Shown here: positions 269 to 17,519 of the stretch, piece by piece | How the letters are laid out: each line of letters opens with the position of its first letter | Position numbering within the stretch: position 1 is the first letter of the stretch | Origin: Boothiomyces macroporosus | Lineage: Eukaryota; Chytridiomycota; Chytridiomycetes; Rhizophydiales; Terramycetaceae | Direction: 5' to 3' | DNA: 20,212 bases | Assembly (NCBI GenBank): GCA_027604185.1 | Contig: JADGKB010000179.1 | Coordinates: 1 to 20,212 of the forward strand | Notes under the pieces: generated by a model | Databases searched by the model: none | What the model saw: only the letters and a program-made list of their open reading frames with translations | Told to the model about the DNA's origin: nothing | Position numbers and translations under genes: made by a program

Positions 269-1435
269 ATGACCCACCTTTGGTTGAGAGCTGAAACTAA
301 GAAGAACGAAGAACGATCCGCATTGACTCCATCTGTAGCCAAAACATTGATGGAAAATGGTGATTCATTACTTACTCAGGATTTAAAATCACTGTTGAAA
401 AGTGTAACCAACGCATTTTCAACATTTCTGAATTTGAAGAGTAAGAGAAATTTAATTCAGGATTGGATGTACAATTGCTGAGTCTGGAAGCTGGAGATCT
501 GCTCCATTGGATGCATATATTATTGGATTGAAGGAATTACCTGAAAATGATGACTCTCCTCTACCCCACACACATATTATGTTTGCTCACTGTTACAAGA
601 ATCAAGAAGGTTGGAAAGATGTTTTGTCTCGGTTCGTTCGTGGAAAAGGTTTACTGTTGGACCTTGAATTCCTAATGTTGAACGGAAGAAGAGTCGCCGC
701 ATATGGTTACTATGCCGGTTTTGCAGGTTCTGCTGTTGCTTTGGATGTATGGGCCCATCAAATATTGAATCCTGGTGAAAGGTATCCTAAAATCAACTCG
801 TATCCAAACGAACCTGCATTAATTGAACACACAAAGGAGTTGCTTCACAAGGCTTGTAATATATATTAATATTAGCTGCTCAAATTGGAAGAACACCAAA
901 GGTAATGGTTATGGGAGCTAAAGGTCGTTGCGGAACTGGTGCTGGTGATTTTGCACGTCGAGTTGGAATTAACAAGTAATTATATTTTGACATTAGAAAG
1001 GACATTATTGAATGGGATATGGAGGAAACCAAGAAAGGCGGTCCATTCTATGAGATTTTAGAAAGCGACATTTTTGTCAACTGCATCTATTTATCGTCAA
1101 AGATCCCACCTTTTTTGACCAAGGAGATGTTGGATCAACCAAAGAAGCTTACTGTCATATCAGATGTCAGCTGTGATGCAACTAATCCAAACAACCCTAT
1201 CCCAGTGTACTTTGGCGCAACTACATTTGATGACCCATTAATCAACATAAAGACCAAGACTCAGGACGTCGATGTGATAGCCATTGATCATTTGCCATCC
1301 CTTCTACCTCGAGAAGCCAGCGACATGTTTGCCAAAGATTTGCTAAACACTTTGCTTCAATTACCAAAAAGACAAGAAAGTGTTGTTTGGAGCGACGCTG
1401 AAAAGTTGTTTAACGAAAAAGTTAAATTATTATAA
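269..1435 (+). CDS. LYS1: Saccharopine dehydrogenase (NAD+, L-lysine-forming)
   Basis: Last step of the fungal alpha-aminoadipate pathway: saccharopine + NAD+ gives lysine + 2-oxoglutarate. The spliced product is 361 aa (yeast Lys1 is 373). It opens with HLWLRAETKK, and IIGLKELPEND and FAHCYKNQ carry the lysine (K75) and histidine (H94) that match the catalytic Lys77 and His96 of yeast Lys1. It continues with GRRVAAYGYYAGFAG, the Rossmann loop VMVMGAKGRCGTGAG, IFVNCIYLS, ATNPNNPIPVY and IDHLPSLLPREAS. Four introns were placed by restoring these blocks: 360-379, 441-460 and 856-875 (20 nt each) and 976-996 (21 nt). Start 269 fits the family's short N-terminus; in-frame ATGs at 215 and 113 would add 18 or 52 residues. 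The C-terminus is KLL, not the peroxisomal SRL of yeast Lys1. LSM6 follows 56 bp downstream on the same strand. Confidence 0.95.
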
Positions 1436-1491
1436 AGTTATTTGACTTAGTAATCACATGATCTGAGAATCATTTTTTTAAAATCAATCTC

Positions 1492-1814
1492 ATGGAAGCC
1501 AAGAAACCCTCAGAATTTTTACAGAACGTAATAGGAAAGGATGTTACAGTTAAACTTAATTCTGGGATCGAATATAAAGGTACCAGATCGCTAATCCAGG
1601 GACAATGACTTGCTTGGATGGATACATGAATATTGCGTTGGAAAACACTGTCGAATACGTTGATGGGGAGCAGAAAAACGAATATGGAGATTGCTTTATT
1701 CGTGGTAATAATGGTAATAGAGTACTAACAGAGTATTATATATCAGCCAATAAAATAGTTTTATTATGGAATTTCTTTGAGGGGAGAATTTCTCAAGCTC
1801 CATACGTTAGCTGA
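1492..1814 (+). CDS. LSM6: U6 snRNA-associated Sm-like protein LSm6
   Basis: Subunit of the LSm1-7 (mRNA decay) and LSm2-8 (U6 snRNP) rings. The spliced product is 94 aa. The Sm1 motif reads EFLQNVIGKDVTVKLNSG, GIEYKG, then TMTCLDGYMNIALE. The Sm2 motif reads NEYGDCFIRGNN and then YYISANK, very close to animal LSm6. Introns are 1580-1599 (20 nt, CTAAT before CCAG) and 1714-1731 (18 nt, ending TACTAACAG). The 18-nt intron is a multiple of 3 without an in-frame stop, so retention would insert six residues (GNRVLT). Removing it restores the usual spacing between RGNN and YIS. The tail after SANK is about 19 residues longer than normal for the family, and its last 22 bp overlap the end of the convergent EMI1-like gene, so the exact 3' end is less certain. 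Confidence 0.9.
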
Positions 1815-2090
1815 GCTTCTTTCTTCTCGTTTCCTTGTTCGATTACTTTCCTCTCTTTCTACAATCGCATTCTACATTAACTATTCGTACATGTGCATCC
1901 TCGTCTGTCATTCGCTTGGTCTTTATACAAAACAAAAACTCGTCAATCACTGATTGGCAGTCTTTGAATTTCCCGTACCTGTAATATTGCTTCATTTGCG
2001 GAATAACAGCTACCATTAAAGCAAATTACTAAGGCATAACTGCACGGAATCAAATGATTTCACTATACTACAGCTTTTCTGTTCTTGCAT
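1793..2090 (-). CDS. EMI1: EMI1-like DUF3128 protein
   Basis: Small twin-cysteine protein of the DUF3128 family; yeast Emi1 is linked to early meiotic gene induction and the family has CHCH-like cysteine spacing. Exon 1 (2090-2030) encodes MQEQKSCSIVKSFDSVQLCL. After a 20-nt intron (2010-2029) it reads QMKQYYRYGKFKDC and DEFLFCIKTK, the family core of C...F...C...YYRYG..+DC....D.F.FC...K. A second intron, 1859-1881 (23 nt, starting GTTAAT), is inferred because removal gives a charged helix RIKERKVIEQGNEKKEAQL ending at 1793, 84 aa in all. Without it the frame ends at 1843 with a cysteine-containing tail, 75 aa. The family call is firm; the C-terminal structure is not. The start is the first ATG upstream of the conserved block. 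Confidence 0.75.
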
Positions 2091-2673
2091 AATTTTCAAA
2101 GAAAAATTTGGAAACCGCAATACACATACTGAGAGATATTTGGTTAAGCTTTTCGTTTCCAGTTTCATGGTTTCTTTGTGAAAGGGAATAGCTGGTGTGA
2201 TATCTTGGTTGATGAGGGAATGGTTGACAGCAGTAAATTACAACAAAGATGAGTTCATTTGTGCTTAGCTAAGGGGTATTATCCAATAGGTGCGCAACAG
2301 TATTCGGCCTGAAGATGTGTTTAAAAGGTACAGTACAAGCGTGGATGATATTGAGCGTTTGGTACAATCCAAACTGTTTCGATATATAGTGTAATATAGG
2401 AGGCTTCACTCCTCATTACATGGGACATGGGACCCATCTAGTAGACGCGGAATGAATATTAAATAAAGAGCAGGGATAGTGACCTTTAAAACTTGCAATA
2501 ATCACTGGAATCCCATGTAAACAGCGACTTGAATATACAATTATGTACTCTGACCGCAATTACTGTAGGCCTACTCAATAAGTATCTTAAAAGAACAAAT
2601 AAATATTCTTCAGCACAGCTGGCTACACCAGGAGCGGCAGACAAGATAGATTCAATGTCTAGTAAGACTTTTA
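2091..2673. other. Intergenic stretch between EMI1-like and UBX5-like genes
   Basis: No recognisable gene. On the + strand 2290-2394 holds a 34-codon open frame whose translation includes EDVFKRYSTSVDDIERLVQS. It looks protein-like, but I could not connect it to an upstream exon with a start codon because in-frame stops flank it. A short tandem repeat of ACATGGG lies near 2418-2431. No tRNA-like fold was found. Confidence 0.4.
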
Positions 2674-4004
2674 TTAAATATAATCAAGAGCAAGAGAAGA
2701 ATTAAGCGCACCTACTTGTTCAATGGTCTGGTCCAGTTTAAGTAAAAGAGAATCTCGCACTAATTTCAAATCAAACGGCTTTTCAGCAACATCGGTAAAG
2801 TTACCTTTGATGAATGCAAATATTTCTTCTACTTTATCGTCCTTGTTAAACTTGCGAACACTTTTTTGGCCATCTATGATTAATAATATATACTTGGAAA
2901 CCGTAGTTGAATGCGAGTTGTTTCATTTGCAGGTCGTACAGTCTCTGGTTGTTGGTTGGGAATAATATTATTGAAAACTAGAATAAGAATTGAATTACTG
3001 GATACTGGATCCGAAGATTCAATTTTGACCTTTTTGGGCTGGCTGGATTCCAACTTTGGTTCTTGCCCCATTGAAGCGGCGATTGCCAGCTCTAATTGCT
3101 CTTCCTCGCTTAACATTACAACGTCTTTTTCCGTAGGTTTATCCTTTGGTTTTGGTTTTTGAATCGACTCAAGGTAGTCGTGCACTATAGTCAACAATTA
3201 CTTTACACTCTATTAAAAATTCAGTAGGAGTGATTGAATAATTCCAATATTTTACTCTTTCCGCTAATTGAGAAAAAACTTACAGGTTAAAGGATCCAAA
3301 AGTGCGATATATGGATAATTGTCAAACGGATAAAAGTTTCGATGCTGCAAACCAGCAGGACTATTACTTCCTAGTTGTAGAAATATGAATTTTTCTTTTA
3401 TGAGCTCCTTTACATTTTGGTTTTTCCACAAATCTCGGTTTAAAGCCTGGCACACGAATTCAGAACTATCATGAATAGTAACAATCAAGCTTTTGTCCGA
3501 CTTTAAAGCTTCTTGACACGCCATTTCAAATGAACCTTTATAAATGAGGTCTACTGGAGGCTGAAATAACTTTGCTAGTCTGTCATTATCTTCCCAAGGA
3601 CTAGGCCCTGAGATTAAAGTGTGAATACCTGTATCAGCTCCTACATCCCCAGTATCGTGCATGCCCTGTTGAAATGGCTCTGGTGTTGATGAATAACTAC
3701 GAGCATGTCTGGCGAACGTGGGATGTTCAAATGGATCAATAGGATTTAGAATCTGACGTGAGGCAGGGATAACTTCTCTAACTTGGTTTCTTGACACAGA
3801 AGTGGAGCTTACAAACTGAACATCATCGTCAACTTCAATCGGATTATGTTGTGCTCCTCTTTCTAACGAGGCGTTTCCCCCTGATTCCAAATACAGCATA
3901 ATCGCTTGCTGAATATCTCCACCTCCAAAAGTCAAATAATTTTCTGCCGTCGCTGGATCACTGCATCCAGTTATATTCATGAATTCCGCGAGATCGTCGT
4001 CCAT
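2674..4004 (-). CDS. UBX5: UBX5/UBXN7-type Cdc48 (p97) cofactor: UBA-UAS-UIM-UBX protein
   Basis: Adaptor linking ubiquitylated substrates to the Cdc48/p97 ATPase. The spliced product is 422 aa. A UBA-like domain covers residues 1-42 (start DDDLAEFMNITGC, then DIQQAIMLYLESGG). A UAS thioredoxin-like domain spans about 125-268, with KEKFIFLQLGSNSP, PYIALLDPLTSERVK and ITPTEFLIELHDYL. A ubiquitin-interacting motif is SEEEQLELAIAASMG (285-299). The C-terminal UBX domain (about 345-422) has TTRIQLRFPNGQKSVRKFN and ends in NSSLALDYI. Introns: 3264-3283 (20 nt), 3185-3206 (22 nt) and 2874-2893 (20 nt), the last inside the UBX domain. Start 4004 gives the canonical acidic UBA N-terminus; an in-frame ATG 33 bp upstream lacks family support. 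Divergent from PRP28. Confidence 0.93.
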
Positions 4005-4517
4005 TTTACTAAAAAATTGAAACAAAGCAAGGGGCAAATTTAGTATACACGATTAAATATATTGCAAGCCGAAATGCTTGCTAATCGCTAAATCACTTAC
4101 TATGGTAAATTATAAACAAGGTTTTGAATAATTTCTCTAGCTATTCGTGGTAATGCAGACTCTAATAGTTATAGTATCATTTTCTATTCAATCCATCCAG
4201 GAACTAGATCAAAAGTGGCGAATATTTTCTTTTTTCTTTCCGTTTTTTTCTAGCATCTCCAACCGAAACTGAAAAAATCACTTTCTAGTAGGAGACTGTA
4301 CCGCTTTGAAATCCTGTATACTTTCTATTCAATGAATACTGTACGTGGAAACGAAGCGAATAATAACGTATCGCAGTCCATTTGAAAGTTGCTACTACAA
4401 CTAACAACTGGAGCTGAAAGTGTGTGCTGTAAGCCTCCACTGTAATACTACATCTCTAACATTCCCACTTTGTAGAAATTTTTTGATTTTTTAAATTATT
4501 CTTTGTGATCTTAAAAC
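4005..4517. promoter_or_regulatory. Divergent intergenic region between UBX5-like and PRP28
   Basis: About 510 bp shared upstream region of two divergently transcribed genes. It contains a strongly pyrimidine-rich run on the + strand at about 4226-4252 (mostly T with interspersed C). No ORF of note, RNA gene or convincing repeat was seen. The promoter role is inferred only from gene orientation. Confidence 0.4.
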
Positions 4518-6471
4518 ATGAGCTCAGTTCCATCACTTCAAGATCTTTTATCCAAAAAAGCGGGGAATGAAGCGGTCCAAAAGCCGGTATTTCTATCAAA
4601 AGCTGAAAGAGCAAAATTAGCATTGGAAAGGAGAAAGAAGGAAGTTGAAGAGAGTAAAAAGCTTGGAAAGCCTCTGTTTTCTCACACAAACAAGGATATG
4701 GTAAAAGATAATTCAGGCAAACGAAAAGCGGATGATCTAGAGTTGGGAGACGAGGAGTTGAAATCAATTAAAAGCAGATATTTGGGAGGAGAAAAACGAG
4801 AACGAGCTCTAAGGAAACCTGGGGATAAAAAGTTTGTGTTTGATTGGGACTCAAAGGAAGACACGTCTAATGATATCAATCCTTTATATCAAAATAAGCA
4901 TTCTGCTCAATTGTTTGGTAGGGGACATTTTGCCGGAATGGATGACTTTGACAAGAAAGACAATGGAAAGAAGAAAGGTTTCGATGATAGGCATTGGAGT
5001 GAAAAGACTTTGGATGAAATGACTCAACGTGATTGGAGAATATTCAAAGAAGATCATTCCATAACTGTCAAAGGTAGTAATATTCCAAACCCTTTGAGAA
5101 GTTGGAAAGAATCAGATATCCCTCTGGATATATTGAAGGCTATCAAGTTCAAAGAGCCTACTGCAATTCAAAGACAAGCAATTCCAATTGGTTTGCAAAG
5201 TAGAGATATGATTGGGTTGGCAGAGACTGGCTCCGGTAAAACTGCTTCGTTTGTCATTCCAATGCTGGCATTCATCAGGCAACTGCCACCGCTGGACCAT
5301 CTGAACTCGCACTTGGGTCCTTATGGGTTAATCCTTGCACCAACAAGGGAACTAGCCCAGCAAATAGAAGCTGAAACAAATAAATTTGCAAAGGAACTTG
5401 GATTTCATGTGGTTTCAATGGTGGGAGGCCACAGTAAAGAATCACAGACTGCAAGAATGTTGAATGGAGCCCATATTATTATAGCCACTCCAGGTAGACT
5501 TCGAGATGTATTGGACAGTCGAATCTTGTCTCTAGCTCAATGCACGTTTTTGGTTTTGGACGAAGCTGATCGGATGGTAGAAGAAGGATTCAAAAATGAC
5601 CTAACGTACATTCTAGATTCCATGCCTGTATCCAATTTGAAGCCTGATACTGATGAAGCTGAAAGTATTGGTTGGTTAAAAGAAAAAATCAAGTCAAAAA
5701 ATCCTTATAGGCAAACCCTATTATTCTCTGCGACTATGCCACCGGAAATTGAAAAGCTGGCAAAAGAGTAACGGAATTCTAACATAGCTATTTAAGAAGA
5801 CCAGTAACTGTAATTGTCGGCCAAGTGGGTCAGGTGGTGGATCGTATTGAGCAACGCGTAGAAATGATTACTGAGGAAGGAATGAAATTAAACAGACTTT
5901 CTAGTATTTTCCGCTCAAAGGAATTTTCTGCCCCTATTATTATATTTGTAAACCACAAGAAAACCTGTGATGTTGTCGGAAGAGCCTTGGAGAAAATTGG
6001 GGTAAAGTATACAACATATCACAGTGGTAAATCTCAAGATCAACGTGAAGCCGCGGTTGCAAATGTTAAATCAGGCGCTAGAGATGTTTTGATTGTATTT
6101 TTATTATTAACATTAGGCTACAGATGTCGGAGCTCGAGGAATGGATATCAAAAATGTGTCGTTGGTTATTAACTTTGACATGGCAAAAAATATTCAAGGT
6201 ATATATATATTAATGTAGATTATACCCAGTAATTTCATTATTAATGTAGTCGTATTGGGAGAACTGGAAGGGCAGGTAAGAATGGTGTGGCAATTACTTT
6301 TCTGGCGAGCTATGATACAGACTTGTACTATGATCTGAAGCAACTACTAAAGGCCTCTCCTATATCCAGCATTCCTCCGGAGCTAGCCCGACACGAGGTA
6401 ATCATTTATAACACTAGGCATCTATGCAGAGACCTTCAGATAAAAAGAAGGAAAGGCCTTTAACCATGTAA
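4518..6471 (+). CDS. PRP28: Pre-mRNA-splicing DEAD-box ATP-dependent RNA helicase Prp28
   Basis: Helicase that helps exchange U1 for U6 at the 5' splice site when the tri-snRNP joins (human DDX23). Spliced 616 aa, near yeast Prp28 (588). A charged N-terminus holds [14 protein letters not shown] and [15 protein letters not shown]. The helicase core has the Q motif (FKEPTAIQ, 211-218), motif I AETGSGKT (235-242), PTRELA (275-280), TPGR (324-327), DEAD (348-351), SAT (404-406) and motif [12 protein letters not shown] (from 550). The Prp28-type insertion DADEAE-like stretch follows the DEAD box, then [20 protein letters not shown]. Introns: 5768-5787 (20), 6095-6116 (22), 6199-6218 (20), 6229-6249 (21) and 6398-6417 (20). 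The third and fourth flank an exon of only 10 nt (6219-6228) that supplies most of DYTH. The frame ends in a short basic tail after IPPELARHE. Confidence 0.96.
6219..6228 (+). other. PRP28: 10-nt microexon of PRP28
   Basis: The ten bases ATTATACCCA lie between a 20-nt intron (6199-6218) and a 21-nt intron (6229-6249). With the flanking G and T they encode D-Y-T-H, joining NIQ to RIGRTGRAG. This is exactly the conserved DYxHRIGR block of DEAD-box helicases, so the exon is required for motif VI. Confidence 0.9.
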
Positions 6472-7106
6472 ACTCAATAAATCATTTATTTCTAAACAGG
6501 AACTGTCCTCTATGAACGCTCGGTCTCATATGTACGTTTTTCTCAATCAAATCCAGAGGACTAAAGTGAGTGCAAGTTTTACGTTTTCAATATTTCATCC
6601 GTAGCATCAATTTTATACAAATCCGGAGAGTTGAACACAAATCCAAACATAGAAATTATTAAACTTGCGAGGGTTTCGAATATGATATCACTAGGTAAGG
6701 GAATTGGGTGCGACACTGATTTCGCAATTTGGAAATCTTTTGTTAATAAATTGTACGTTCAACCACCGAGTATCCGGCATGTACCAGCATTGTAACTCCA
6801 ATCTGTCTGTTAAGTTGAGATTTACAATAGTAAGTAATTTCCCAAGCATTTTTGTGATGCAAAAAACTCAAAAAGTGAGAACGAGAAATGTGGAGGAAAT
6901 ACCACAAAAGTATTATCAGCTCAAGTTTTGAACGATACATTATGTCTGGGATATCCCCAAACCCTAATAAGAAATACTATTGAAATGTTTTGAAAAAAAG
7001 GCTGCATGATCGAGATTGCACAATAATGCGGACGGGAAGTCATTGCTACGTATTTATGAAGCCCTTACAAAACAATACTTCAACTATGAAAGGCAAAAAC
7101 AAAAAA
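6472..7106. other. Intergenic stretch between PRP28 and tRNA-Phe
   Basis: No assigned gene. On the + strand an open frame without a starting ATG runs from about 6564 to 6798 and includes SILYKSGELNTNPN and IEIIKLARVSNMISL, which looks protein-like. A short open frame from ATG 6512 (MNARSHMYVFLNQIQ) lies just upstream in another phase; joining them would need a 39-nt intron, outside the size class seen here. I considered a Mediator Med4-like C-terminus but the match is too weak. Bases 7095-7106 are the T-run downstream of the tRNA gene. Confidence 0.4.
7095..7106 (-). terminator. RNA polymerase III terminator of tRNA-Phe
   Basis: Read on the minus strand, the tRNA's last base is followed at once by T6, then G, then T5. 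This is a standard pol III termination signal. Confidence 0.85.
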
Positions 7107-7179
7107 TGCTCCTTGTGTGGATTGAACACACGACCTCAGCATCTTCAGTGCCGCGCTCTCCCAGCTGAGCTAAAGAAGC
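7107..7179 (-). tRNA. tRNA-Phe(GAA)
   Basis: A 73-nt intronless gene folding as a full cloverleaf. The acceptor pairs GCTTCTT with AAGGAGC (one G-T pair), with discriminator A. The D stem is GCTC/GAGC with loop AGCTGGGA. The anticodon stem is CGGCA/TGCTG with loop CTGAAGA (anticodon GAA). The variable loop is AGGTC, and the T arm is GTGTG-TTCAATC-CACAC. The A box (TAGCTCAGCTGG) and B box (GTTCAATCC) are present. It sits alone between PRP28 and the RING/TPR gene. Confidence 0.97.
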
Positions 7180-7822
7180 AGATGCTCAGCAATTCATAGA
7201 AACCCGAATCAATCTATTTGACAATTTCAGTTGGTTCAAAATGCGTACAGGCGCAAAACTGAGTCTAATTATACAATTCATTTATCAGCAACTATAAATT
7301 TTATAACAATATGATGAACCAATTACCTCCTGCTTTCGCTAGTTATTGGAATCGTTAAATCAATACCATCAATGATGTTGAAAAATATTAGTATACTTCA
7401 TCTCCTAATATTCAGCTTACTTGATTTAAACCCAATTAATACCAAGTTGATTCTTTGAGCTGGCTCATTGGATCAGAAAATTGAGAATACACCATTAGAT
7501 ATTTTCAAAAAATTCGATAACATAGATAAGCAGCCAAAAAGCGATTAGCTGCCCTCCCTAATCTATACGATATTCATTTAAATATTATCTAATTAGAAAA
7601 TGAATCTAAAATTACTCTTCCTCAAAGTACAGGTGAATTTTGACTCAGTCTATGCACTATTATAAAACAATTAATATTATGGCAAAGTTGAACAAAAAGA
7701 CAGGTAGAAAAATGCTGTCTGACCAATTATTTATTTCAACTACTTCAGATATTCTCATGCCATGATTAATAAATACTAATGGGTTAGATCATACTTTTCC
7801 AAACTGAATAGATTTACTATGA
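7180..7822. other. Intergenic stretch between tRNA-Phe and the RING/TPR gene
   Basis: About 640 bp of AT-rich sequence with stops in all frames. I see no gene, structured RNA or notable repeat here. Confidence 0.4.
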
Positions 7823-10800
7823 TTAAACCCAAAATTTGGATTTGAAAAAATTGACCATATCTGAGTCGGTTTCACTCTTTCCACTAACAGAAGCATAGAG
7901 TTTCATTAAAATCTTGTATTCACCAGCAGCATCCAAAGCATCAACGTAATTTGACAAGCTTTTGATTCCAGAAGCTTTCCCCTCCATAATTAAACTGTCC
8001 AACAATTTTGGATGCTTAAATTTCTTGTGTTTTATAAGTAATCTATTAATTTCTGAGTGTAAATAAAGTTCATCCTGATTAACATCTTGTTGGAAAGGGT
8101 AACTGATGTACACCTCTAAAGCTCGCTCTTCATCTTTTAGTTTCATTAGAAGGTTTGCCAATTCAATATAAGCATCGAGAAAGTGAGTATCTAAGTCAAT
8201 GACTTCCTTATAGTATGTAACCGCTTTCTCCAGATAGTTCTGTTGTAATTCAGAGGTGTGCAGGAGTTCTGGGTTATGATGGGCGACTAAATAAGTATGC
8301 ACTTTGGCAAGGCCATATCTTGCTAGAGCCCTTTTTGAACTTGGAATGGAATTATTTTCAGAAATATCTTTTTTCTCCAAGATATTGTCTAACCGTGTAT
8401 TTTCAATAATCTTATCCACTTCCTCAGCTTTCTGTGCAGGTAAATCTTTTGAAGAATTTTTACCAATTACCTTTGAAGAATTTACAACCTTGTCCCCACT
8501 TTTGTTTGAGGATTTAGCTGCATTTTTTGTACCTGCACTTAATTTCAGATTTCCCTTTTCAACTTTAGTACTTTTTGCAACGACAGGTACTTTACTTGAA
8601 CTGCTTACTTTCCCCACAGGAATCTTTTTTCCACTAGATACATCTGAACTTTTTTGCTGTGAGTCTTGTTTGAATTTCGGGTTATTTTGAATGTTGTTCA
8701 CTTTTTTAAATTCCGAAATTCGGTTGTTTAAACTTACCCACCAAGGTTGCGACTTTACATCACTAGGAAGTAATCCATTTTCCAAACCTATTACAGATTG
8801 GAAAGTTTGTTGTGCAAAGTTAAGCATTTGTTGGTCATTTGTTGACTCGTACAATTGCAGTTGGCTGTTCGCTAAGTTCAACAAATTTGTTATGCTTTCA
8901 AATTTATACAACAAGTACAATTGGGATATTTGATACAGAATCTCTGGATTAGAGTCTTTCAATAAATGGCTGGAAATACTAAATAGTGCTGTTTCTAATA
9001 GTGCTTTTACTGGATTTGATTCATTATTTTTTGTAAGATAGAGTAATTCATATGTGTTGGCGAGTGCCTTACATAATGTGGAGCATAAAATATCGAACCT
9101 TTGAGTATTTCTTGAGCAGTTAAAAAGAATGGGTGGTAGGACATAGAGAAGATTTAACATAGTATTTACACCATTAGTTATTTCTCCTTTCAAGGCATAA
9201 CCTTTCGCTAATGCAAAGAAAGTGTCAGTGAAAAGATTATCAAATGCACAAAATTGGATTAGCATTCCAATATTTTGCGGATTTTCTTCGCCTAATCTAT
9301 GAAGTAATATTATTGAATACTTTGACAAGTGATCAATTGCACAATCTAACTTCAATATGTCATTTTGCGATATTTGGTTAATTGATAAAATATATGAAAC
9401 TGCCCAAACAGCAGCTATTTTCGTACAATTGGGAAGAATGCTACTTCCTAATGATGCATATTGGTGTGCCATGATATAATTCTCACATTTCAAGAAGTAA
9501 GTTGCAGTGGCAAGGCTATAGTTATTTTCTACTTACCATCCTTCATAAGAATCCTTGTGATAACTTGAAAGATAATAGCAAGCATCATACAGTAACTCTT
9601 GATATTTCGAATGATTCACCTTCTTGCCTTCATTTGAACTTGCAGCATTACTTGCATCAACTTTTAGTTTCCAGGTAATTAATTCCTGAATTTCACTTGC
9701 CTATAACATATGACTAAATTTACCTCGTTTATTTTACCATCATTTTTGAGACGATGATATTCTGCATCCATAGCTTTTATTTTGGTAGCATTATCTGCTG
9801 ATGGAGGAATTCCCAGTTGAAGCAGTAACCCTGCTACTTCGTCTTGAATGAAACTTTCTTTTGCAAGCGCATTTTCATTATCTACCATAACCTTGTCTAA
9901 ATGTTCAGGAAACATACTTTCAACAAGTTCTAGCTCACGGAGAATCATTTCAAAACTTAACATCAATTTTACACTTGGAGCTTTGCTGGTCAATGAAAAC
10001 TGCTCTACTTCATATGCAATCATAGTTGCTAATACTTCTAATGCCTCAAGTAACAGAGAAATTTTAGGTGGTGTATATTTCTTTCCCTGGTTTGACAAAT
10101 TTGTAGACCATGTATCCTTTAAACTGCGAGTATATTTCTGGAGCAATGACGACAATAGCATTTCTGATTGTTCTACATTGTAGCTATACTTCCTCTTATT
10201 TACTAATGTGGATTCAATTATATTGGGATCCTTCAACTTGATAATTTCTGTTAGAGTGAAATTGCAGTTATAGTTGTGCAAATGGAGTGCACCATTTGGT
10301 ATCGATTTTGAGCATTTTGAACATGTACTATGACATTTAGAACTGTGCTTGGAGCCATCGAGATTCTTCTTGCTATCAAGCCATCCACATTCCGAGCAGA
10401 TCACAGGAAATTGAGAACAGTTCAATTTTAAATGAGCTTTCAAAGATCGCAGAGCGATTGCTGTTTTGCATGCTAACGGACAATTAAATTGAATGGAGAG
10501 AAATTCATTTTCTTTTTCCTTGTTGGAACTCTTTAGTACATCATCCTTAGTAACTGTACCGCAAATCGTACACTTTACTTGCACTTCCTTTTCATTCCAA
10601 TACTCTCTTAATAAAAGCAGATTTGCACAGGGTCGGCAATAAATATGTCCACATGTCAATGATTTACGGGGTTGGAACAGTGGGCAAACACATGCAGAGC
10701 ACATTAAATCTATCCTGGAGATATCTGGTCTGAATGTAAGTTTTTCTGGTCAAGAAAATATTACCTTTTCGAAGTGTTATAGTATAGGTCGCTTCGTTTG

Positions 10801-11380
10801 ACTTGTTCTCCGCAATTACTTTATATTGGATTTGAGTTTCCCCAAGAAATAGCTTTTCAGGATTTCCAATTTTCTCGATTACTGTTTGGCTATTTATAGG
10901 AACTAATTTGCATTCGAAGTTTTCCATTTCTGTTGCTACATCCACAAAGTATTCCGTTTCGGTGTTGCTGAATGGAGGTACTAGACTCAATCCTTCAGGA
11001 ATGATTAATTCTTTTAATGTTACATCTGATTCTAATTATGCATTAATTTTAGGATTCTTACCAGTGGGACGATATACATTTATCTGATATGTCGATTTCG
11101 AACCATCAGGTGCATCAACAGCAATTTCAATCAAGTTGCTCCCATAAATTATTTGAACTAGACCGTCCTTATTCATTTTTTGCACCTGAGCGAATGCATC
11201 TGCCTCTGAACAGGTCGTTTTTACTGTTACATCTATTTTTAAAAATTGTTCACTTTCCACTTTAGATTCGACCACAGCATTGTACACTTTTGTCCCTTTT
11301 ACGAATGAAGGAGTGAGAGTTATGGGCTTTGTAGAAAGCTTGGAGCTAATCGCCAATGACTTTAGTGAAGAATCGTTCAT
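7823..11380 (-). CDS. Cadherin-like beta-sandwich / RING / TRAF-type zinc finger / TPR protein
   Basis: Spliced product 1154 aa, function unknown. Residues 1-106 and 107-195 each match the pattern of the cadherin-like beta-sandwich family (Pfam Cadherin-like, PF12733): SLKSLAISS ... GSNLIEIAVDAPDGS..YQINV and VTLKELIIPEGLSLVPPF ... TEYFVDV ... ATYTITLRK. A RING finger follows at 211-257: C-x2-C (211, 214), C227, H229, C232, C235, C254, C257. Cys/His-rich TRAF-like fingers span about 280-355. A helical region leads to TPR-like repeats, interrupted by a Ser/Lys-rich linker (about 870-963). The C-terminal block has YYKEVIDLDTHFLDAYIELA and ends FFKSKFWV. Introns: 11032-11061 (30 nt), 10746-10764 (19), 9701-9723 (23) and 9516-9536 (21). 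The RING suggests E3 ubiquitin ligase activity (inference). No signal peptide or membrane helix is obvious, so it is probably intracellular. Start 11380 follows an in-frame stop. Confidence 0.85.
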
Positions 11381-11501
11381 TTATATTTTGGAAACAATAG
11401 GTTCGCCTCTCAACAAAGTTGACATATATCCAGTCAAAACTATTCGAAATAAAGTAACTCAATTATAATTGATAAATGAAAACGTTTAAAATTTAGAAAA
11501 A

Positions 11502-13249
11502 TTATAATAATTGTTTTTCGAGCCCATCACATATTCTCATCAATTCCTCATTCTCAGCAATTTTCCCTGCTAAATTTCGTTCGAGAGTAGTGTTTTGGCA
11601 CTCCAATCTGGAGACTTTTGATCTTGTTGCAATTAGTTCTTTCTCATATGTTGCTCTAACCCTTGCTATTTCAACATTTGCCCTATATATTAACAAAGAA
11701 ATTCACTCTTCCAATTTTGATTCAGCATGCTGACGGAGTTTGTCAAAACGGGCATTGGCAATTGCAAGTTCCTCTTTCATTTTTTCTGAAGTATTTTTTT
11801 GATTATCGCTTAACTAGATCAACCCTACACTTACCTCTCTTAAATCAGTGAAATCCAATCTCAACTGCTTATATTTAAGTTGCTGCTCTTCCAGATCCTT
11901 CTTTTGGGTTTCAATTATCTTCAAAAATTCTGCCTTTTCATTGTGCAATTGGAGTATTTGAGTGTTTAACACTTCCTGCTCCTTTTCTTTATCAGCTACG
12001 ATAAGAATATCATTAACCTATCATAGATTTTACAGCTTTTTCCCATTCTAATAACGTCGCCTTCATGGAGCTATTCTCTTCAACCAAAATTTCATTTTTC
12101 CTATTCATATCATTCAATTCCTCCTGAGCTAAGGCAAACTCCTTTTCAAACTATATTAACTACCGAGGTTACTTTAAAAGTTAAATCTTTTTCAAGTCTG
12201 TCCAAATCGTGCTTATTATATCTGAATGCTGAGTTAGGAGATGACATTGGTTCAAAAGAGTCAAGAAGAGACATTTTTTGTTCAGTAGCAGTTGAATTGG
12301 AGGATAGCGTAATGTCTTTTGCCTTATTTACTGGATTTGGAGAGTCAAAGGACATCATCCAGTCTTTTGGGATTAGAGGATCAAACTCCAGTGTAAGTTT
12401 AGACTGCAATACGTTTTCATTCAATCCTAACCCTTCAACTGCCACAGTGACACCCTCCGATTTCGCAGAGGAATCATCCGCAGTGGTTGAAATGTCTTGC
12501 AACTTTGACAAGAATGTTTTTCGCTGTGATGGAGTGCCTACTGGTGAAACATGGGTTGAGTCTTCAGGAGAATTGTCATTTTCTTCTGTAAATGGTAATC
12601 CAACGTTTTCCAAATCTTCAATTGTTTCGTTTAGCAATTCCTCCATAAAGAAAGACCGCTCCTCCACTTCAAACGTTTTCGGTGGGGTAATTTCCTCAGC
12701 TTGAAGTGAAAATTTTGAGGTAACCATTCCGCCGATAGATAATCTGGGGGTTTTCATAATTTCATCCAGTGATGGTTGTTTTTTTGGCGTAAATCTCTTT
12801 ATGATAGGCTCTTTGCCTCCTATCTGTTCGGCGCTTAATGCAATATCATTTAAAGGTTCCTTTTGCTTGTTTCTACTTTCCTTTGGGGTTGATAAAACCA
12901 TAGACGACGCTGATCTATGTATAACCGTTTTTGGTGCGTCTTCTAGACCTGAAAACGAATTTGTCCTTTTCTTTGGTGTATTCTACGCATAAATATGAAT
13001 TAACCTTCTTGGGAGTAGTCCATGATGGCAGTATACCCCACAAACCGGACGACTGGGTCTCTTCAATCTCTTCCTTTGATTCCATGTTGTTAGAACTTGC
13101 GCTAAAATTAGTCAGAGGAATTACCCTTTGGTTGGCGTACTAATTTGCCAGCTTTTAGAATCCAACTTGAAGGATTCGGGTTCTTTTTTGTTTCTGATTT
13201 CTTTCCCAACTGATCGGAAAAGCAAAGTCCGCCTGTCCAGACTTGAGAT
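11502..13249 (-). CDS. TACC-family (Alp7-like) coiled-coil protein, 5' end unresolved
   Basis: TACC proteins bind TOG/XMAP215 microtubule polymerases and act at spindle poles and microtubule ends (S. pombe Alp7). The C-terminal 180 or so residues are continuous coiled coil. It runs from FEKEFALAQEELND to RVRATYEKELIATRSKVSRL and ends NEELMRICDGLEKQL, the TACC-domain signature. The N-terminal half is Ser/Pro-rich and low in order, with repeated TPKK/STPK basic sites. Introns: 13102-13124 (23), 12983-13004 (22), 12151-12172 (22), 11996-12017 (22), 11814-11834 (21) and 11683-11706 (24). At least 537 codons remain. The frame is open from 13249. An ATG at 13376 lies in the same frame but is separated by a TGA and a TAA that no plausible GT-AG intron removes. 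Divergent from PMT2, with about 220 bp between. Confidence 0.85.
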
Positions 13250-13467
13250 TTAAGATGAAAATAAGCGCAATCTAGGAATCTGATTTTCAAGAATCTTTCA
13301 AATTTGAGCTTTGTTCTCTAGTTGTCCAGTTTCATTCATACTTTTTTGAAATAAATAACCAAGTGGTATACTCATGCTAAAAAAGTCCTGATGACTAGCG
13401 CTGACAGACATAGAACTAGAGCTGGTTTTGTAGGACAAGTAGAGCCGTCAAAGAATTTGCTTTTTGC

Positions 13468-15966
13468 ATGTCATCTGTAAAGCACCGCAAAAAAGACAAG
13501 AATCACTCTAAAAGGGATTCATCAGTAGCATCTAGAGAACAAAGTCCTGTAAAGGAAGATTCACCAACTCCAAGACTTCTCACCCCGCCTCCAAAGTTAT
13601 CAACGCAGGATCAATCCAAGGAAAAGATTGCACCAGAAAAGGAGGTTCCAAAAGCGATAGAACCAACCAAAAGTAACGAGTTTGCGTACAAAATTGCATT
13701 TTATATTGTAACACTGCTAGCAATTATTACACGTTCTTGGATGATTCACCATCCTGGGGAAGTTGTTTTTGACGAAGTTCATTTTGGAAAGTTTGCCTCC
13801 TATTACTTACGAGGAGAGTACTATTTTGATGTTCATCCACCGCTTGGAAAGTTATTGATCGCTTTAATTGGAAAGTTAGTTGGCTATAATGGACATTTCT
13901 TGTTTGAAAATATTGGTGATAATTATTCAGAAAATAATGTTCCATATATCGCTTTACGCTTATGGTGCGCTATCTGCGGTGCAGCAGTTGTACCTGTGGC
14001 ATTCTTGATTATGAAAGAACTTGGAGTTTCAGTAGCTGGTTGTGTCTTGGGATCGGTAATGCTAGTGTTTGGTAAATTCTAGTTAATGTAGACACTGCTT
14101 TGACAACCCAATCGAGACTAATCCTCTTGGACAGCATGCTTATGCTATTTTGTATCACTGCAATTTACTTTTGGGTAAAGTTCCAAACTGTCCGTCACAA
14201 GTATTTATTTCTAACGGTAGACCATTTACATTACAGTGGTGGTTCTGGCTATCTATGACTGGATTTGGGCTTGCACTGGTCTTGGGGTATTTTGTCTTAA
14301 CCAAAGTGTAAAATTAGTTGGTCTATTCACTGTCGCTACTGTCGGAGTGGCCACTTTATTTGATTTATGGGAAATTCTTGATATCAAAAGGAACCAGGAT
14401 GTGGTAACTTGTCATTTAGATAGAAAATCTTTTTCAAGCATTTCGCTGCTAGGGCATTGTGCTTGATTGTATTACCTCTGGTTCTGTATTTAGTTCCATT
14501 TTACATCCACTTTGCTTTATTGACTACCAGTGGACCTGGTGATGCATTCATGAGTTTAGAATTCCAAGAAACCCTCGCTGGAAATGTCAAAACCGCCGGC
14601 GCTACAGGTAATATCGATTAATCGTTAGATGTATTGTATTATTCAAATATTACAATTGCACACTCAGGTACAAATCATTTCTTGCACTCACATGAACACG
14701 TATATCCCTTGCGATATGACAACGGTCGAGTCTCGTCGAATGGACAGCAAGTTAATGCTTATGCTCATTTTGATAACAATTCTTATTGGCAAATTCTTCC
14801 AGTTGATCCTGAATATTTCCCAGAAGCAGTGGAATTGACCGATGAAGAAAAGAATAGAGATATTCGTTACCTGAGACATGAAAGTTATGTTCGCTTAAGA
14901 CATCTCACGACTGATACATATTTGACCACTCATGATGTTGCATCACCACTTACAACTACAAATATGGAGATTACCACACTAAGTTATGATAAAGCAGCTG
15001 CTCGTTACAATGACACAGTTTGGAAAATCTACATCAGCGAAGGAAAGGATAAGAAAAAGAAAATCAAGAGCAAGAAGAGCACTATAATTATTCAAAGTGC
15101 CCAATACAATGTTGCTTTGTTCACCTCAAAGGATAAATTACCAGATTGGGGCTTCAAAATGCAAGAGGTGAACGGAAATAAGAAATTGACTCAAAAGGCA
15201 AACCACTGGACGATTCAAGATGTACAGCATGAAAAGATTGTCCCTGGTAATCCAAATCTAACGCATAGAAAAAGAAAAACCAAAGACCAAACACACCATG
15301 CCATTTTTGAAAAAGTTCTTTGAACTTCAAGGACTCATGATTCATCACAATAATGCTCTCACTTCTTCCCATCCATATTCATCTTCTCCAATTACTTGGC
15401 CTTTTGTTATTCGAGGCATTTCGTTCTGGGAGAAGAAAGAAGGGGTAAAGCAAATCTATTTAATTGGTAATCCGATTGCATGGTGGTTGTCCATAATTGG
15501 CCCTCTGTTCTATTTCGCCATGTGGTTGGTGGATCGAATTTTGCTAAGAAGAGGAATTGATGATTTTGGCCCCGCTGTTAGGCAATGGTGGGACAAATCA
15601 ATTGGGTTTATGTGTATTGCATGGCTCTTGCACTGGATTCCATTTTTCTTGATGGGAAGACAATTGTTTTTGCATCACTACATGCCTGCTTACATATTTT
15701 CCACAATTGCCTTTGCTACCTTGTTTGACTTTTTGGGACGCACATTTATGAAGCCATTGTCATACATACCAAAGACCACACCTATGCTTAAATGGCACGG
15801 GGGCCAAGGTGGCACAAAGTATATGATTACTGTTATGGTGGTGATTCTTATTATAATGGGATCTTTCTACTACTTTATGCCATTTTGCTACGGAACCGGC
15901 TTCCCAGATGTTCCAACTCTAAGAACCAGAAAGTGGTTTTCTACCTGGGATTTCCAATACGCCTGA
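13468..15966 (+). CDS. PMT2: Dolichyl-phosphate-mannose-protein mannosyltransferase, PMT2 subfamily
   Basis: ER membrane enzyme moving mannose from dolichyl-phosphate-mannose to Ser/Thr of secretory proteins, usually as a heterodimer with a PMT1-type partner. Spliced 791 aa. A basic, Ser/Pro-rich cytosolic tail (1-70) precedes the first membrane helix (about 75-89). Luminal loop 1 carries the conserved Asp-Glu pair D102-E103 in [17 protein letters not shown], then [13 protein letters not shown] and FENIGDNY. Membrane helices and the loop [18 protein letters not shown] follow. A MIR domain (about 355-520) has [30 protein letters not shown] and C-terminal helices with HYMPAYIF close the protein. 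PYY-like DEVHFGKF and HPPLGK place it in PMT2, not PMT1 or PMT4. Introns: 14072-14091, 14201-14220, 14287-14306 and 14404-14423 (20 each), 14608-14628 (21) and 15247-15268 (22). Confidence 0.95.
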
Positions 15967-16040
15967 ATAAGCAATAAATCTTTATGATTGGAATTTGGCT
16001 GTTTTAAGATTGCAATTTTTTAACTTGATTTTTTCCGTTC

Positions 16041-17519
16041 ATGGCGAAACGCAACCACAGACACTCAGAAGAGGAACCGCTATTACCAACCACTAACGGA
16101 GGAACAATTACATCCAACTCTCCCGTGCAGAAGAAAGAACAACAAAGACTACCGAAAAGAACAACAAAAACTTCTCAGAAGCTAACTCTATTCCCAGAAG
16201 GATTAACAGATCCCACAGATTTTGATCCAGCACTTGAAGATGAATCGCAATTACCGCATGTAACGGCCAAGACTCAAAAGGAGCAATGGTATTGTTTTTA
16301 TTAATTTAGGTTGAGTAAGTTGGAAAGGAAATGGCTTCCTCGTGTTACCGCATATTGCACTGCAAAGTATATTATTTTTAACAAGTTCATACAAGATGGA
16401 TAAGATTATGGAGCATTTGCGGATGAAAAATCACATTCATAGAGTAGCGCCAAAGAGATTTGATGAAGGTAGGTGGAATTAACCTAGTGATTTATACACC
16501 ATTTACATTTGATCCAATTATTGAGTTGGACGCCCAGCAAGCAATAATTCCCGATCTAATATCTGTTTCTGCCAGCCATGAACATTCCCATCCAGCATCC
16601 ATCCAGGAAACTGACAATTTCTTTGACCAAAACATAGATGCTTCAGGAAAGTCAATCCCGGGCGACGTATCTTATGGGGACTTGGCGAAACGAATTGCAC
16701 CAATTGGAGAAGTGCTAATATTTGATTATGGAGTCGTGGTGTTATGGGGATTTACGGAAGGTAGCTTGTTTTAATTTCAGAGGAAGAAATTAGAATATTG
16801 GAAGATATATCGCAGTTTCAAGAAGATGTTATCGGTAATTTTGCTTTTTATGTAGAAAAGGATTCTGTAGAGACGGAGCAGTTCTACTTCCATTACAACT
16901 GTATTTATTACTAACCGTAGCCTTTTACCAGCCTAGAATCTACAACGATATCATTACACTAAAGAATCCAGCAAACTTTATGCTTAAAATCACCATATCT
17001 CACGCGATTGCACAATCTGTGAAGCTTACCCTATTTGAAGGTTTAATAGAAGAAACCATTGAATCTACCAAGCACATCCCAAGAAAAATGGCGAAGGATG
17101 GTAAAATCCACATGTCTAGGATGGCCATAAATCAAAAGATTGGACAGCTGTTCATTATGAGGATTAATGTGAACTTGGTGTCTAATGTACTGGATACTCC
17201 TGAGATATTTTGGAGCGAGCCAGCACTTGAACCGCTCTATAGGGCAATAAGGGGATACTTGGAGATATCGCAAAGGTATTCGTTGTGGTTAAATTAGGGT
17301 GGAATTGCTGAATCAAAGAGTTGGAGTAATTTCAGATTTACTTGACATGCTGAAAGAGCATTTGAACTCTTCTCACGGAGAGCAGTTGGAGTGGATTGTA
17401 ATTATTCTTATCGGTAAAGAATAACTGACAAAGCCTTTGAAATTATTATTGGTATTATAACAATAGCAATCGACCTCACGTCCTACTACCAGCAAAAAGA
17501 TAAAATACCATTGCAATAA
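16041..17519 (+). CDS. RMD1: RMD1/Sif2-family DUF155 protein
   Basis: Member of the RMD1/RMND1 family (DUF155): yeast Rmd1 is needed for meiotic division, and human RMND1 supports mitochondrial translation. Spliced 438 aa, near yeast Rmd1 (402). After a hydrophilic N-terminus of about 85 residues come LERKWLPRVTAYCTA, VAPKRFDE, FDYGVVVLWGFTE, EQFYFHYN, PRIYNDIITLK, ISHAIAQSVKLTLFEGLI, INQKIGQLFIMRINVN and DTPEIFWSEPALEPLYRAIR. A coiled segment follows, then one C-terminal membrane helix (IVIILIAFEIIIGIITIAID). Eight introns: 16289-16309 (21), 16367-16385 (19), 16469-16487 (19), 16761-16780 (20), 16835-16855 (21), 16901-16920 (20), 17276-17297 (22) and 17414-17433 (20). The smallest internal exons are 45 and 54 nt. 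Only 74 bp separate it from PMT2. Assignment to RMD1 over RMD8 rests on length. Confidence 0.93.

What the first reader, a model, noticed from the sequence alone, without database searches (positions are those of the whole stretch)
269..17519. Near-uniform 18-24 nt spliceosomal introns across all nine multi-exon genes
Forty introns were placed by requiring conserved protein blocks to read through. All are GT-AG; 39 of 40 are 18-24 nt and 17 are exactly 20 nt. Most have TAAC, TAAT, TTGAC or CTTAC-like branch motifs 3-8 nt before the AG (e.g. GTAACGGAATTCTAACATAG, GTACCAGATCGCTAATCCAG). Introns this short are known from chlorarachniophyte nucleomorphs and Stentor; as far as I know, typical fungal introns are several-fold longer. 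Here they sit in a host-type gene set with fungal pathways, which makes spliceosome adaptation (how U1, U2 and the branch-binding factors fit in 20 nt) an interesting question. The window also encodes two splicing factors, LSM6 and PRP28.
Basis: partly seen in the sequence, partly recalled or inferred. Interest (0 to 1): 0.92.

Follow-up and report, generated by a model that had tools for sequence, protein, structure and literature searches.

The report
Twenty-base introns in a chytrid fungus
The genes of a chytrid fungus are interrupted by predicted introns only about 20 bases long, whose predicted branch point almost never lies closer than 13 bases to the intron's start, a wall that likely marks the tightest fit a standard splicing machine can handle.

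Summary
Confirmed and extended. The window is a contig of Boothiomyces macroporosus (Chytridiomycota, Rhizophydiales). I place 39 introns in nine genes: 38 are 19-23 nt, 18 are exactly 20 nt, one is 30 nt. Of 25 junctions checked against relatives' proteins, 23 read through without a gap. The pattern is genome-wide. On 20 other contigs plus the window, a gene finder with a flat length prior and bare GT-AG peaks at 19-23 nt, while five decoy dinucleotide pairs show no peak. A pattern search of the whole 15.2 Mb genome peaks at 19-21 nt.

New result: the tight quantity is not total length but the distance from the first intron base to the predicted branch A. It starts abruptly at 13 (0 cases at 12) whether the branch-to-3' splice site distance is 5, 6 or 7, also in a count that uses no gene models.

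U1, U2 and U6 recognition sequences are canonical; SF1, U2AF65 and SMU1 are present. The branching factor Isy1 lacks its usual N-terminus, as reported for Stentor; Cwc25 keeps its plug, unlike Stentor. Splicing itself is untested: no RNA was available. Tiny introns are known in ciliates, nucleomorphs and mikrocytids; my literature searches found none reported for a free-living fungus.

The parts
269..1435 (+). LYS1 (saccharopine dehydrogenase) gene, 4 introns
   Evidence: model; aligned to solved saccharopine dehydrogenase
360..379 (+). LYS1 intron 1, 20 nt
441..460 (+). LYS1 intron 2, 20 nt
856..875 (+). LYS1 intron 3, 20 nt
976..996 (+). LYS1 intron 4, 21 nt
1492..1753 (+). LSM6 gene, 2 introns
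   Evidence: aligned to solved LSm6
1580..1599 (+). LSM6 intron 1, 20 nt
1714..1733 (+). LSM6 intron 2, 20 nt (CTAACAGAG end: the AG nearest the branch A is passed over, required by the conserved VLYIS)
1764..2090 (-). PANTS-like (PF11326) gene, 2 introns; start uncertain
1872..1890 (-). PANTS-like intron, 19 nt
2010..2029 (-). PANTS-like intron, 20 nt
2674..4004 (-). UBA/thioredoxin/UBX protein gene, 4 introns (+2 ambiguous stop-free 21-nt candidates)
3264..3283 (-). UBX intron, 20 nt
3185..3206 (-). UBX intron, 22 nt
2978..2998 (-). UBX intron, 21 nt
2874..2893 (-). UBX intron, 20 nt
4518..6471 (+). PRP28/DDX23 gene, 5 introns
   Evidence: aligned to solved DDX23
5768..5787 (+). PRP28 intron 1, 20 nt
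6095..6116 (+). PRP28 intron 2, 22 nt
6199..6218 (+). PRP28 intron 3, 20 nt
6219..6228 (+). 10-nt microexon between two tiny introns, codes for part of D-Y-T-H before helicase motif VI; missing from the deposited protein
6229..6249 (+). PRP28 intron 4, 21 nt
6398..6417 (+). PRP28 intron 5, 20 nt
7823..11380 (-). RING/TPR-repeat protein gene, 4 introns (30, 19, 23, 21 nt); RING named by eye, TPR by Pfam
11032..11061 (-). the one longer intron, 30 nt
10746..10764 (-). RING-TPR intron, 19 nt (placed by hand; joins the two open frames)
9701..9723 (-). RING-TPR intron, 23 nt (no clear branch motif)
9516..9536 (-). RING-TPR intron, 21 nt
11703..13085 (-). coiled-coil protein gene, 4 introns; 5' end uncertain
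12983..13004 (-). coiled-coil intron, 22 nt
12151..12172 (-). coiled-coil intron, 22 nt
11996..12017 (-). coiled-coil intron, 22 nt
11814..11834 (-). coiled-coil intron, 21 nt
13468..15966 (+). protein O-mannosyltransferase (PMT) gene, 6 introns
14072..14091 (+). PMT intron, 20 nt
14201..14220 (+). PMT intron, 20 nt
14287..14306 (+). PMT intron, 20 nt
14404..14423 (+). PMT intron, 20 nt (3-residue alignment gap at the junction)
14608..14628 (+). PMT intron, 21 nt
15247..15268 (+). PMT intron, 22 nt (1-residue gap beside the junction)
16041..17519 (+). DUF155/RMD1-like gene, 8 introns
16289..16309 (+). DUF155 intron 1, 21 nt
16367..16385 (+). DUF155 intron 2, 19 nt
16469..16487 (+). DUF155 intron 3, 19 nt
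16761..16780 (+). DUF155 intron 4, 20 nt
16835..16855 (+). DUF155 intron 5, 21 nt
16901..16920 (+). DUF155 intron 6, 20 nt
17276..17297 (+). DUF155 intron 7, 22 nt
17414..17433 (+). DUF155 intron 8, 20 nt

Best explanation
The 19-23-base gaps that interrupt the genes of this chytrid are predicted to be ordinary major-spliceosome introns that likely shrank until their predicted branch A hit a wall 13 bases from the first intron base, the point where the U6-5' splice site helix and the U2-branch helix would lie end to end with no linker between them. Shown here: gap lengths, GT-AG ends, the YTAAY motif, the wall at 13 (the same for 5, 6 and 7 nt from branch to 3' splice site), and canonical U1, U2 and U6 recognition sequences. 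Inferred: that the gaps are spliced from RNA, that the motif's A is the branch point, and that the wall comes from helix packing in the activated spliceosome. The shortening would then have been absorbed by proteins around the branch helix (a candidate is the changed N-terminus of Isy1) rather than by changed snRNA pairing. Deletion bias pushing introns against a fixed physical minimum would explain both the sharp lower edge and the quick decay above it. My separate estimates: tiny introns 0.97, a real wall 0.93, the helix-packing cause 0.45.
For: Homology-checked junctions. Flat-prior gene finder against decoys and with learned signals and lengths: 277 of 295 introns are 18-24 nt. Whole-genome pattern (branch-to-3' distance fixed at 5), 100 of 110 matches listed: lengths 17: 1, 18: 0, 19: 41, 20: 29, 21: 11, then 18 spread over 22-45 nt. 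Wall: of 277 introns, 272 have the predicted branch A 13-17 nt after G1, none at 12, five assigned to 6-11 with poor or competing motifs. The minimum length rises with the branch-to-3'SS distance (5: 19, 6: 20, 7: 21; the six introns with 4 start at 19 and do not reach the wall). After dropping those five, shuffling that distance among introns puts 29.2 on average (minimum 15 in 5000 shuffles) below 13, against 0 observed. Gene-free count in 266 kb: 23 in all at distances 6-11, 0 at 12, then 13: 78, 14: 58, 15: 25, 16: 9, 17: 4, background about 3 per position; a control donor shows no step. snRNAs: U1 AUACUUACCUG, U2 GUGUAGUAUCUGUUC, U6 UACAGAGAAGAU. Isy1 lacks the MARN-EKA-SML start kept by Spizellomyces, Fimicolochytrium and Chytriomyces.
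Against: No RNA evidence from this species. The branch A is a motif call. A floor set by early-recognition proteins (U1, SF1-U2AF) would look the same. Stentor introns, with a 10-11 nt lariat circle (PMC9505925, passages read), break this wall, so it is not universal; one of the 100 listed whole-genome matches here is 17 nt (distance 11). Cwc25 keeps its MGGG plug, unlike Stentor. Isy1 is also altered in Globomyces, Kappamyces and Gorgonomyces, whose intron lengths I could not see. Of the 295 introns in the sample, 18 fall outside 18-24 nt, and some 54-103 nt ones carry good signals. With no distance prior, 35 of 277 best-scoring motifs fell at 7-11. The gene-free count covers the same sample as the gene models, so it is not an independent sample; the whole-genome pattern is.
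Confidence: 0.6

Rival explanations
1. The introns are real, but the 13-nt wall is set during early recognition: the footprints of U1 on the 5' splice site and of SF1/U2AF65 on the branch region must fit side by side before U2 joins, and the active site itself would tolerate less.
For: SF1 with its helix-hairpin, KH and zinc-knuckle domains and U2AF65 with its RNA-binding domains and UHM (in the six-frame search it stayed under the family cut-off, 230.7 of 310.3 bits) are present. In human cells 46 nt is given as the minimal productive donor-to-branch length, ascribed to assembly of the U1/U2 complex (PMC11291888, passages read). Stentor shows that a catalytic core can work with a 10-11 nt circle (PMC9505925, passages).
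Against: The whole 20-nt intron is smaller than a usual SF1-U2AF footprint (recalled), so simultaneous binding with U1 is doubtful. The 5' splice site signal is short (G at +5 in 55 of 277), which argues for loose rather than extended U1 contact.
Confidence: 0.3
2. The narrow size reflects recent shared origin (introner-like copies of one element) rather than a physical limit.
For: Very uniform length and shared end motifs.
Against: All 277 sample introns differ, and similar pairs are no commoner than in column-shuffled sets (80% identity or more: 123 pairs against a mean of 102 and maximum of 127; 90% or more: 6 against 3 and 6). Copies would not explain a floor on one distance only.
Confidence: 0.03
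3. The gaps are not spliced at all: ribosomes bypass them, or they are removed from DNA, as with translational bypassing elements or ciliate internal eliminated sequences.
For: Lengths of 19-23 nt suit small hop elements (recalled), and no RNA was seen.
Against: GT-YTAAY-AG with a branch-distance rule matches U1/U2 pairing. A relative's protein P0242 (445 aa, 80% identical, source without organism name) reads through all eight DUF155 junctions on a contig of only 1407 nt, as spliced cDNA would, though an intronless gene there is not excluded.
Confidence: 0.01
4. Assembly or sequencing errors broke the frames.
For: None found.
Against: The same motif and lengths recur in stretches of 20 other contigs and in a whole-genome pattern count.
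Confidence: 0.003

Closest known systems
Heterotrich ciliate introns (Stentor 15-16 nt; Blepharisma 15-16 bp, PMC9942806 passage)
   Same: Tiny and narrow in length; 5-nt tail after the branch A in Stentor (PMC9505925 passages) against 5 or 6 in 243 of 277 here; altered Isy1 N-terminus in both.
   Different: Here 19-23 nt with a predicted lariat circle of 14-18 nt against 10-11; Cwc25 plug kept; the organism is a fungus. In Stentor 18% of genes have introns (PMC9505925 passage); in my sample 90 of 126 gene models do.
Chlorarachniophyte nucleomorph introns (18-21 bp)
   Same: Closest in length and in narrowness (PMC10245619, section 7 read).
   Different: Those sit in a relict endosymbiont nucleus with approximately 300 genes carrying more than 800 introns (same section); here a 15.2 Mb fungal nuclear genome with SF1, U2AF65 and SMU1.
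Mikrocytid introns (16-17 nt)
   Same: Uniform length, conserved signals.
   Different: Parasite with a reduced spliceosome and 224 introns annotated in Mikrocytos mackini (PMC10245619, section 7); here 295 predicted in 220 kb.
Microsporidian and other fungal introns
   Same: Same kingdom in the broad sense; spliceosomal introns.
   Different: Microsporidia have few or none (PMC10245619, section 7); other fungi are several-fold longer (Cryptococcus, mean 63 bp, is called relatively short in PMC8476143, passages read).

Membership tests
U2-type (major) spliceosomal introns | GT-AG ends and 5' splice site consensus | tested here: met
   GTA in 92% of 277, then A, T, T preferred; GT-AG was required by the finder, with decoy pairs showing no peak
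U2-type (major) spliceosomal introns | Branch motif pairing with U2 GUAGUA | tested here: met
   YTAAY motif; U2 region GUGUAGUAUCUG
U2-type (major) spliceosomal introns | U1, U2 and U6 snRNAs in the genome | tested here: met
   the U1 score of 68.8 bits is just under the Rfam cut-off of 69.5, but its 5' end is exact; U4 and U5 were not searched
U2-type (major) spliceosomal introns | Excision from RNA as a lariat | not testable with these tools
   no reads available
Heterotrich (Stentor-type) tiny introns | Length 15-16 nt with a 10-11 nt lariat circle | tested here: not met
   19-23 nt; predicted circle 14 nt or more in 272 of 277
Heterotrich (Stentor-type) tiny introns | Isy1 N-terminus not conserved | tested here: met
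   first junction of the Isy1 model uncertain, but no MARN-type start was found upstream
Heterotrich (Stentor-type) tiny introns | Cwc25 glycine plug lost | tested here: not met
   MGGGDLNLKKSWHP present; the model runs on upstream of this M, which I take as the start by analogy
Nucleomorph tiny introns | 18-21 nt | tested here: inconclusive
   19-23 nt, overlapping range
Nucleomorph tiny introns | Located in a relict endosymbiont nucleus | tested here: not met
   chytrid contigs, 15.2 Mb assembly
Introner-type introns | Families of near-identical copies | tested here: not met
   277 sample introns
U12-type (minor) introns | Long conserved ATCC 5' site and TTCCTTAAC branch | not tested
   no U12 search made; the consensus found does not resemble it (motif recalled)

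The most novel reading that the evidence does not exclude
Boothiomyces runs an otherwise standard fungal spliceosome at the physical limit of its RNA core: the 13-base wall is a genome-wide readout of the smallest spacing at which the U6-5' splice site and U2-branch helices can coexist. It has dropped the intermediate in which these helices are held far apart (about 21 nt to bridge 15 nm in the human B complex, PMC11291888 passage), and loss of the Isy1 N-terminal arm is a convergent change, shared with Stentor, that makes room for the tight lariat.
Probability: 0.3. Interest if true: 0.93.

Novelty: new variant of a known kind. Interest (0 to 1): 0.8.

Why it matters
In human extracts and cells the 5' splice site and branch point must be about 46-50 nt apart (PMC6692369 and PMC11291888, passages read); here the predicted distance is 13-16 nt in 271 of 277 introns with canonical snRNA recognition sequences. 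That makes a long-standing question, what sets minimal intron size, testable in a fungus: the wall is sharp to one nucleotide and separable from the 3' spacing. It also warns about data: the deposited PRP28 lacks helicase motif VI, and the deposited (partial) DUF155 protein misses two internal exons and its C-terminus, apparently because short exons between tiny introns were skipped. A pan-eukaryotic intron survey excluded introns under 30 bp (PMC10639083, passage read).

Tried and rejected
Considered and set aside: introner copies, bypassing or DNA-level elements, assembly error (see rivals). In-frame-stop avoidance in 3n introns was counted (21 nt: 57 of 64 with a stop) but is biased, because a stop-free 21-nt intron can be read through by the gene finder; not used. 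Skipped AGs near the branch (9 of the 272 introns examined) are frame-neutral in 7 of 9 and not used, except LSM6 intron 2, which homology fixes. The gene finder first returned 13-, 16- and 61-nt introns in the window that better readings replaced; the 19-nt RING-TPR intron was placed by hand, and the 61-nt one stays among the 295. Isy1's first junction has several readings, including a 1-nt exon; none restores the MARN start. RED_N gave no match but no control rang, so absence is not claimed; SMU1 is present. The 18S search did not complete; the organism was identified through P0001 instead. One search only repeated a control already printed. Literature: ten searches gave no listing of such introns in Boothiomyces or another free-living fungus; the library is open-licence papers only, and supplementary files and the Boothiomyces genome paper were not seen. 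Passages of PMC5364385, PMC8371127, PMC3569864 and PMC13391722 gave no intron lengths for relatives; passages of PMC5014332 (ciliates) were read for background.
Full report
Identity. The PRP28 protein read from the window has as best hit P0001, Boothiomyces macroporosus, on a contig of 20212 bases, the window's own length. DUF155 gives the same species and contig length. Taxonomy: Chytridiomycota, Rhizophydiales, Terramycetaceae. The assembly held as G000 has 15.2 Mb in 216 contigs.

The observation. Spliced models for nine genes contain 39 introns: LYS1 4, LSM6 2, PANTS-like 2, UBX 4, PRP28 5, RING-TPR 4, coiled-coil 4, PMT 6, DUF155 8. Thirty-eight are 19-23 nt, 18 are exactly 20 nt, one is 30 nt. 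Against homologues, 25 junctions were checked; 23 cross without a gap, and two PMT junctions have a 3- and a 1-residue gap at or beside them. PRP28 has a 10-nt exon (6219-6228) between a 20-nt and a 21-nt intron; including it restores DYTHRIGRTGR, helicase motif VI. The deposited protein P0001 lacks that stretch. In DUF155 splicing raises the Pfam match from profile positions 54-171 to the full 1-174, and all eight junctions align without a gap to P0242, a 445-residue protein on a 1407-nt contig: either a spliced transcript of a relative or an intronless gene.

Genome-wide. From 20 stretches of 10 kb on 20 other contigs plus the window, a semi-Markov gene finder with flat prior (10-150 nt) and only GT-AG required gave 125 introns, 62 of them 19-23 nt; five decoy pairs gave 117-124 introns each with no peak. 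With splice signals learned but length still flat (12-150), 138 of 175 are 19-23 nt. With the length distribution also learned, 277 of 295 are 18-24 nt in 126 gene models. That last figure is partly fed by its own prior. The 18 others include one that hand curation removed, three with a possible two-intron reading, and some 54-103 nt candidates with good signals, so a small longer class is possible. The whole-genome pattern GTAATN{2,32}CTAACNTAG has 110 matches against 37 reversed; of the 100 listed (92 distinct), 83 are 19-23 nt, one is 17 and none is 18. The 37 control matches, all listed, are spread over 19-43 nt.

The wall. Fitting only the branch-to-3' distance and leaving the 5' distance free, 272 of 277 introns have the predicted branch A 13 (93), 14 (125), 15 (42), 16 (11) or 17 (1) nt after the first G; none at 12; five were assigned to 6-11, with weak or competing motifs. 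Before that fit, picking the best motif alone, 35 of 277 fell at 7-11 and still none at 12. The joint table shows a floor on this distance, not on length: with 5 nt from branch A to the last G the shortest intron is 19, with 6 it is 20, with 7 it is 21 (with 4, six introns, it is 19, one short of the wall). After dropping the five, 0 are under 13 against a shuffled mean of 29.2 and minimum of 15 in 5000 shuffles. A count that uses no gene models, in 266 kb of fetched sequence (the sample included), gives 23 in all at distances 6-11, 0 at 12, then 78, 58, 25, 9 and 4 at 13-17, over a background of about 3 per position; a control donor shows no step. The branch-to-3' distance is 5 or 6 in 243 of 277. 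In the window's own 39 introns 37 lie at 13-16; the exceptions are the 30-nt one (18) and a 23-nt one without a clear motif (9).

Machinery. U1 (one gene found), U2 (two) and U6 (one) carry canonical recognition sequences. SF1, U2AF65, SMU1, a METTL16-like methyltransferase, Cwc25 and Isy1 are present; the models of SF1, U2AF65, SMU1, Cwc25 and the METTL16-like gene have introns of 19-24 nt only. Isy1's model also carries a 46-nt intron, a 1-nt exon reading and an uncertain first junction. SF3b, U2AF35, U4 and U5 were not searched. RED gave no match, with no positive control. The 5' site has T at +5 in 133 of 277 and G in 55.

Isy1. Thirteen Isy1 proteins that I picked from the 375 found (120 listed) were read. 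Seven start with the MARN/MARS-EKA-type sequence (Spizellomyces, Fimicolochytrium, Chytriomyces, an insect, a cnidarian, an ascomycete, a moss). Two deposited models begin later, at MLYRFREAQ (Geranomyces, Batrachochytrium salamandrivorans). Four lack it: Boothiomyces sp. JEL0838 (98% identical to this genome's), Globomyces (partly similar further on), Kappamyces and Gorgonomyces. In Stentor the Isy1 N-terminus is described as non-conserved and the Cwc25 plug as lacking (PMC9505925, passages read); Boothiomyces matches the first and not the second.

Mechanism. Human spliceosomes need about 46-50 nt between 5' splice site and branch point (PMC6692369, PMC11291888, passages read), and the latter cites about 21 nt to bridge 15 nm in the B complex. 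A 13-nt distance cannot span that, so assembly here must differ at or before activation (inference). The U6 contact on intron positions 1 to about 8 and a U2 helix from about five bases before the branch A to one after it (recalled) add up to about 13 with no linker; this is my preferred reading of the wall. A limit from early factors is the main rival. The shape of the distribution, a maximum at or next to the wall and a fast decay, fits deletion bias pressing on a functional minimum, the explanation offered for mikrocytids (PMC10245619, section 7 read).

Novelty. Tiny introns are known (15-16 nt heterotrichs, 16-17 mikrocytids, 18-21 nucleomorphs). Ten literature searches listed no report for a free-living fungus; the deposited proteins imply that the public annotation already contains some of these introns. 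The one-nucleotide wall on branch distance is, as far as those searches reach, not described.

Noticed in passing
window 7106-7180 (-) and 1-52: tRNA-Phe gene (GAA) on the minus strand; by eye, the first about 52 bases of the window repeat part of the same tRNA, cut off at the contig end.
   Followed up: partly
L034 and L035 (contigs C49 and C100): The Cwc25 loci on two contigs give identical gene models, and only 92 of the 100 listed whole-genome pattern matches are distinct, so the assembly probably holds duplicated or haplotype contigs.
   Followed up: no
L006 (one gene, 0-nt exon) and L032 1258-1300 (1-nt exon): Two tiny introns back to back with no or one base between them; either nested or stepwise splicing, or single introns of about 22-49 nt.
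   Followed up: partly
deposited proteins P0001 and P0241: Public proteins of this contig are damaged: PRP28 without helicase motif VI, DUF155 without two internal exons and its C-terminus.
   Followed up: yes
L030: METTL16-like gene (PF05971) present; with A at +4 in 162 and G at +5 in only 55 of 277 introns, U6 m6A-dependent 5' splice site choice may apply (recalled lead).
   Followed up: no
L001 and L002: Two U2 snRNA genes with identical branch-pairing region but diverged 3' parts.
   Followed up: no
window 3700-3680 and 3628-3608 (-): Two stop-free 21-nt stretches in the UBX gene with intron signals that may be coding or may be introns; only RNA can tell.
   Followed up: partly
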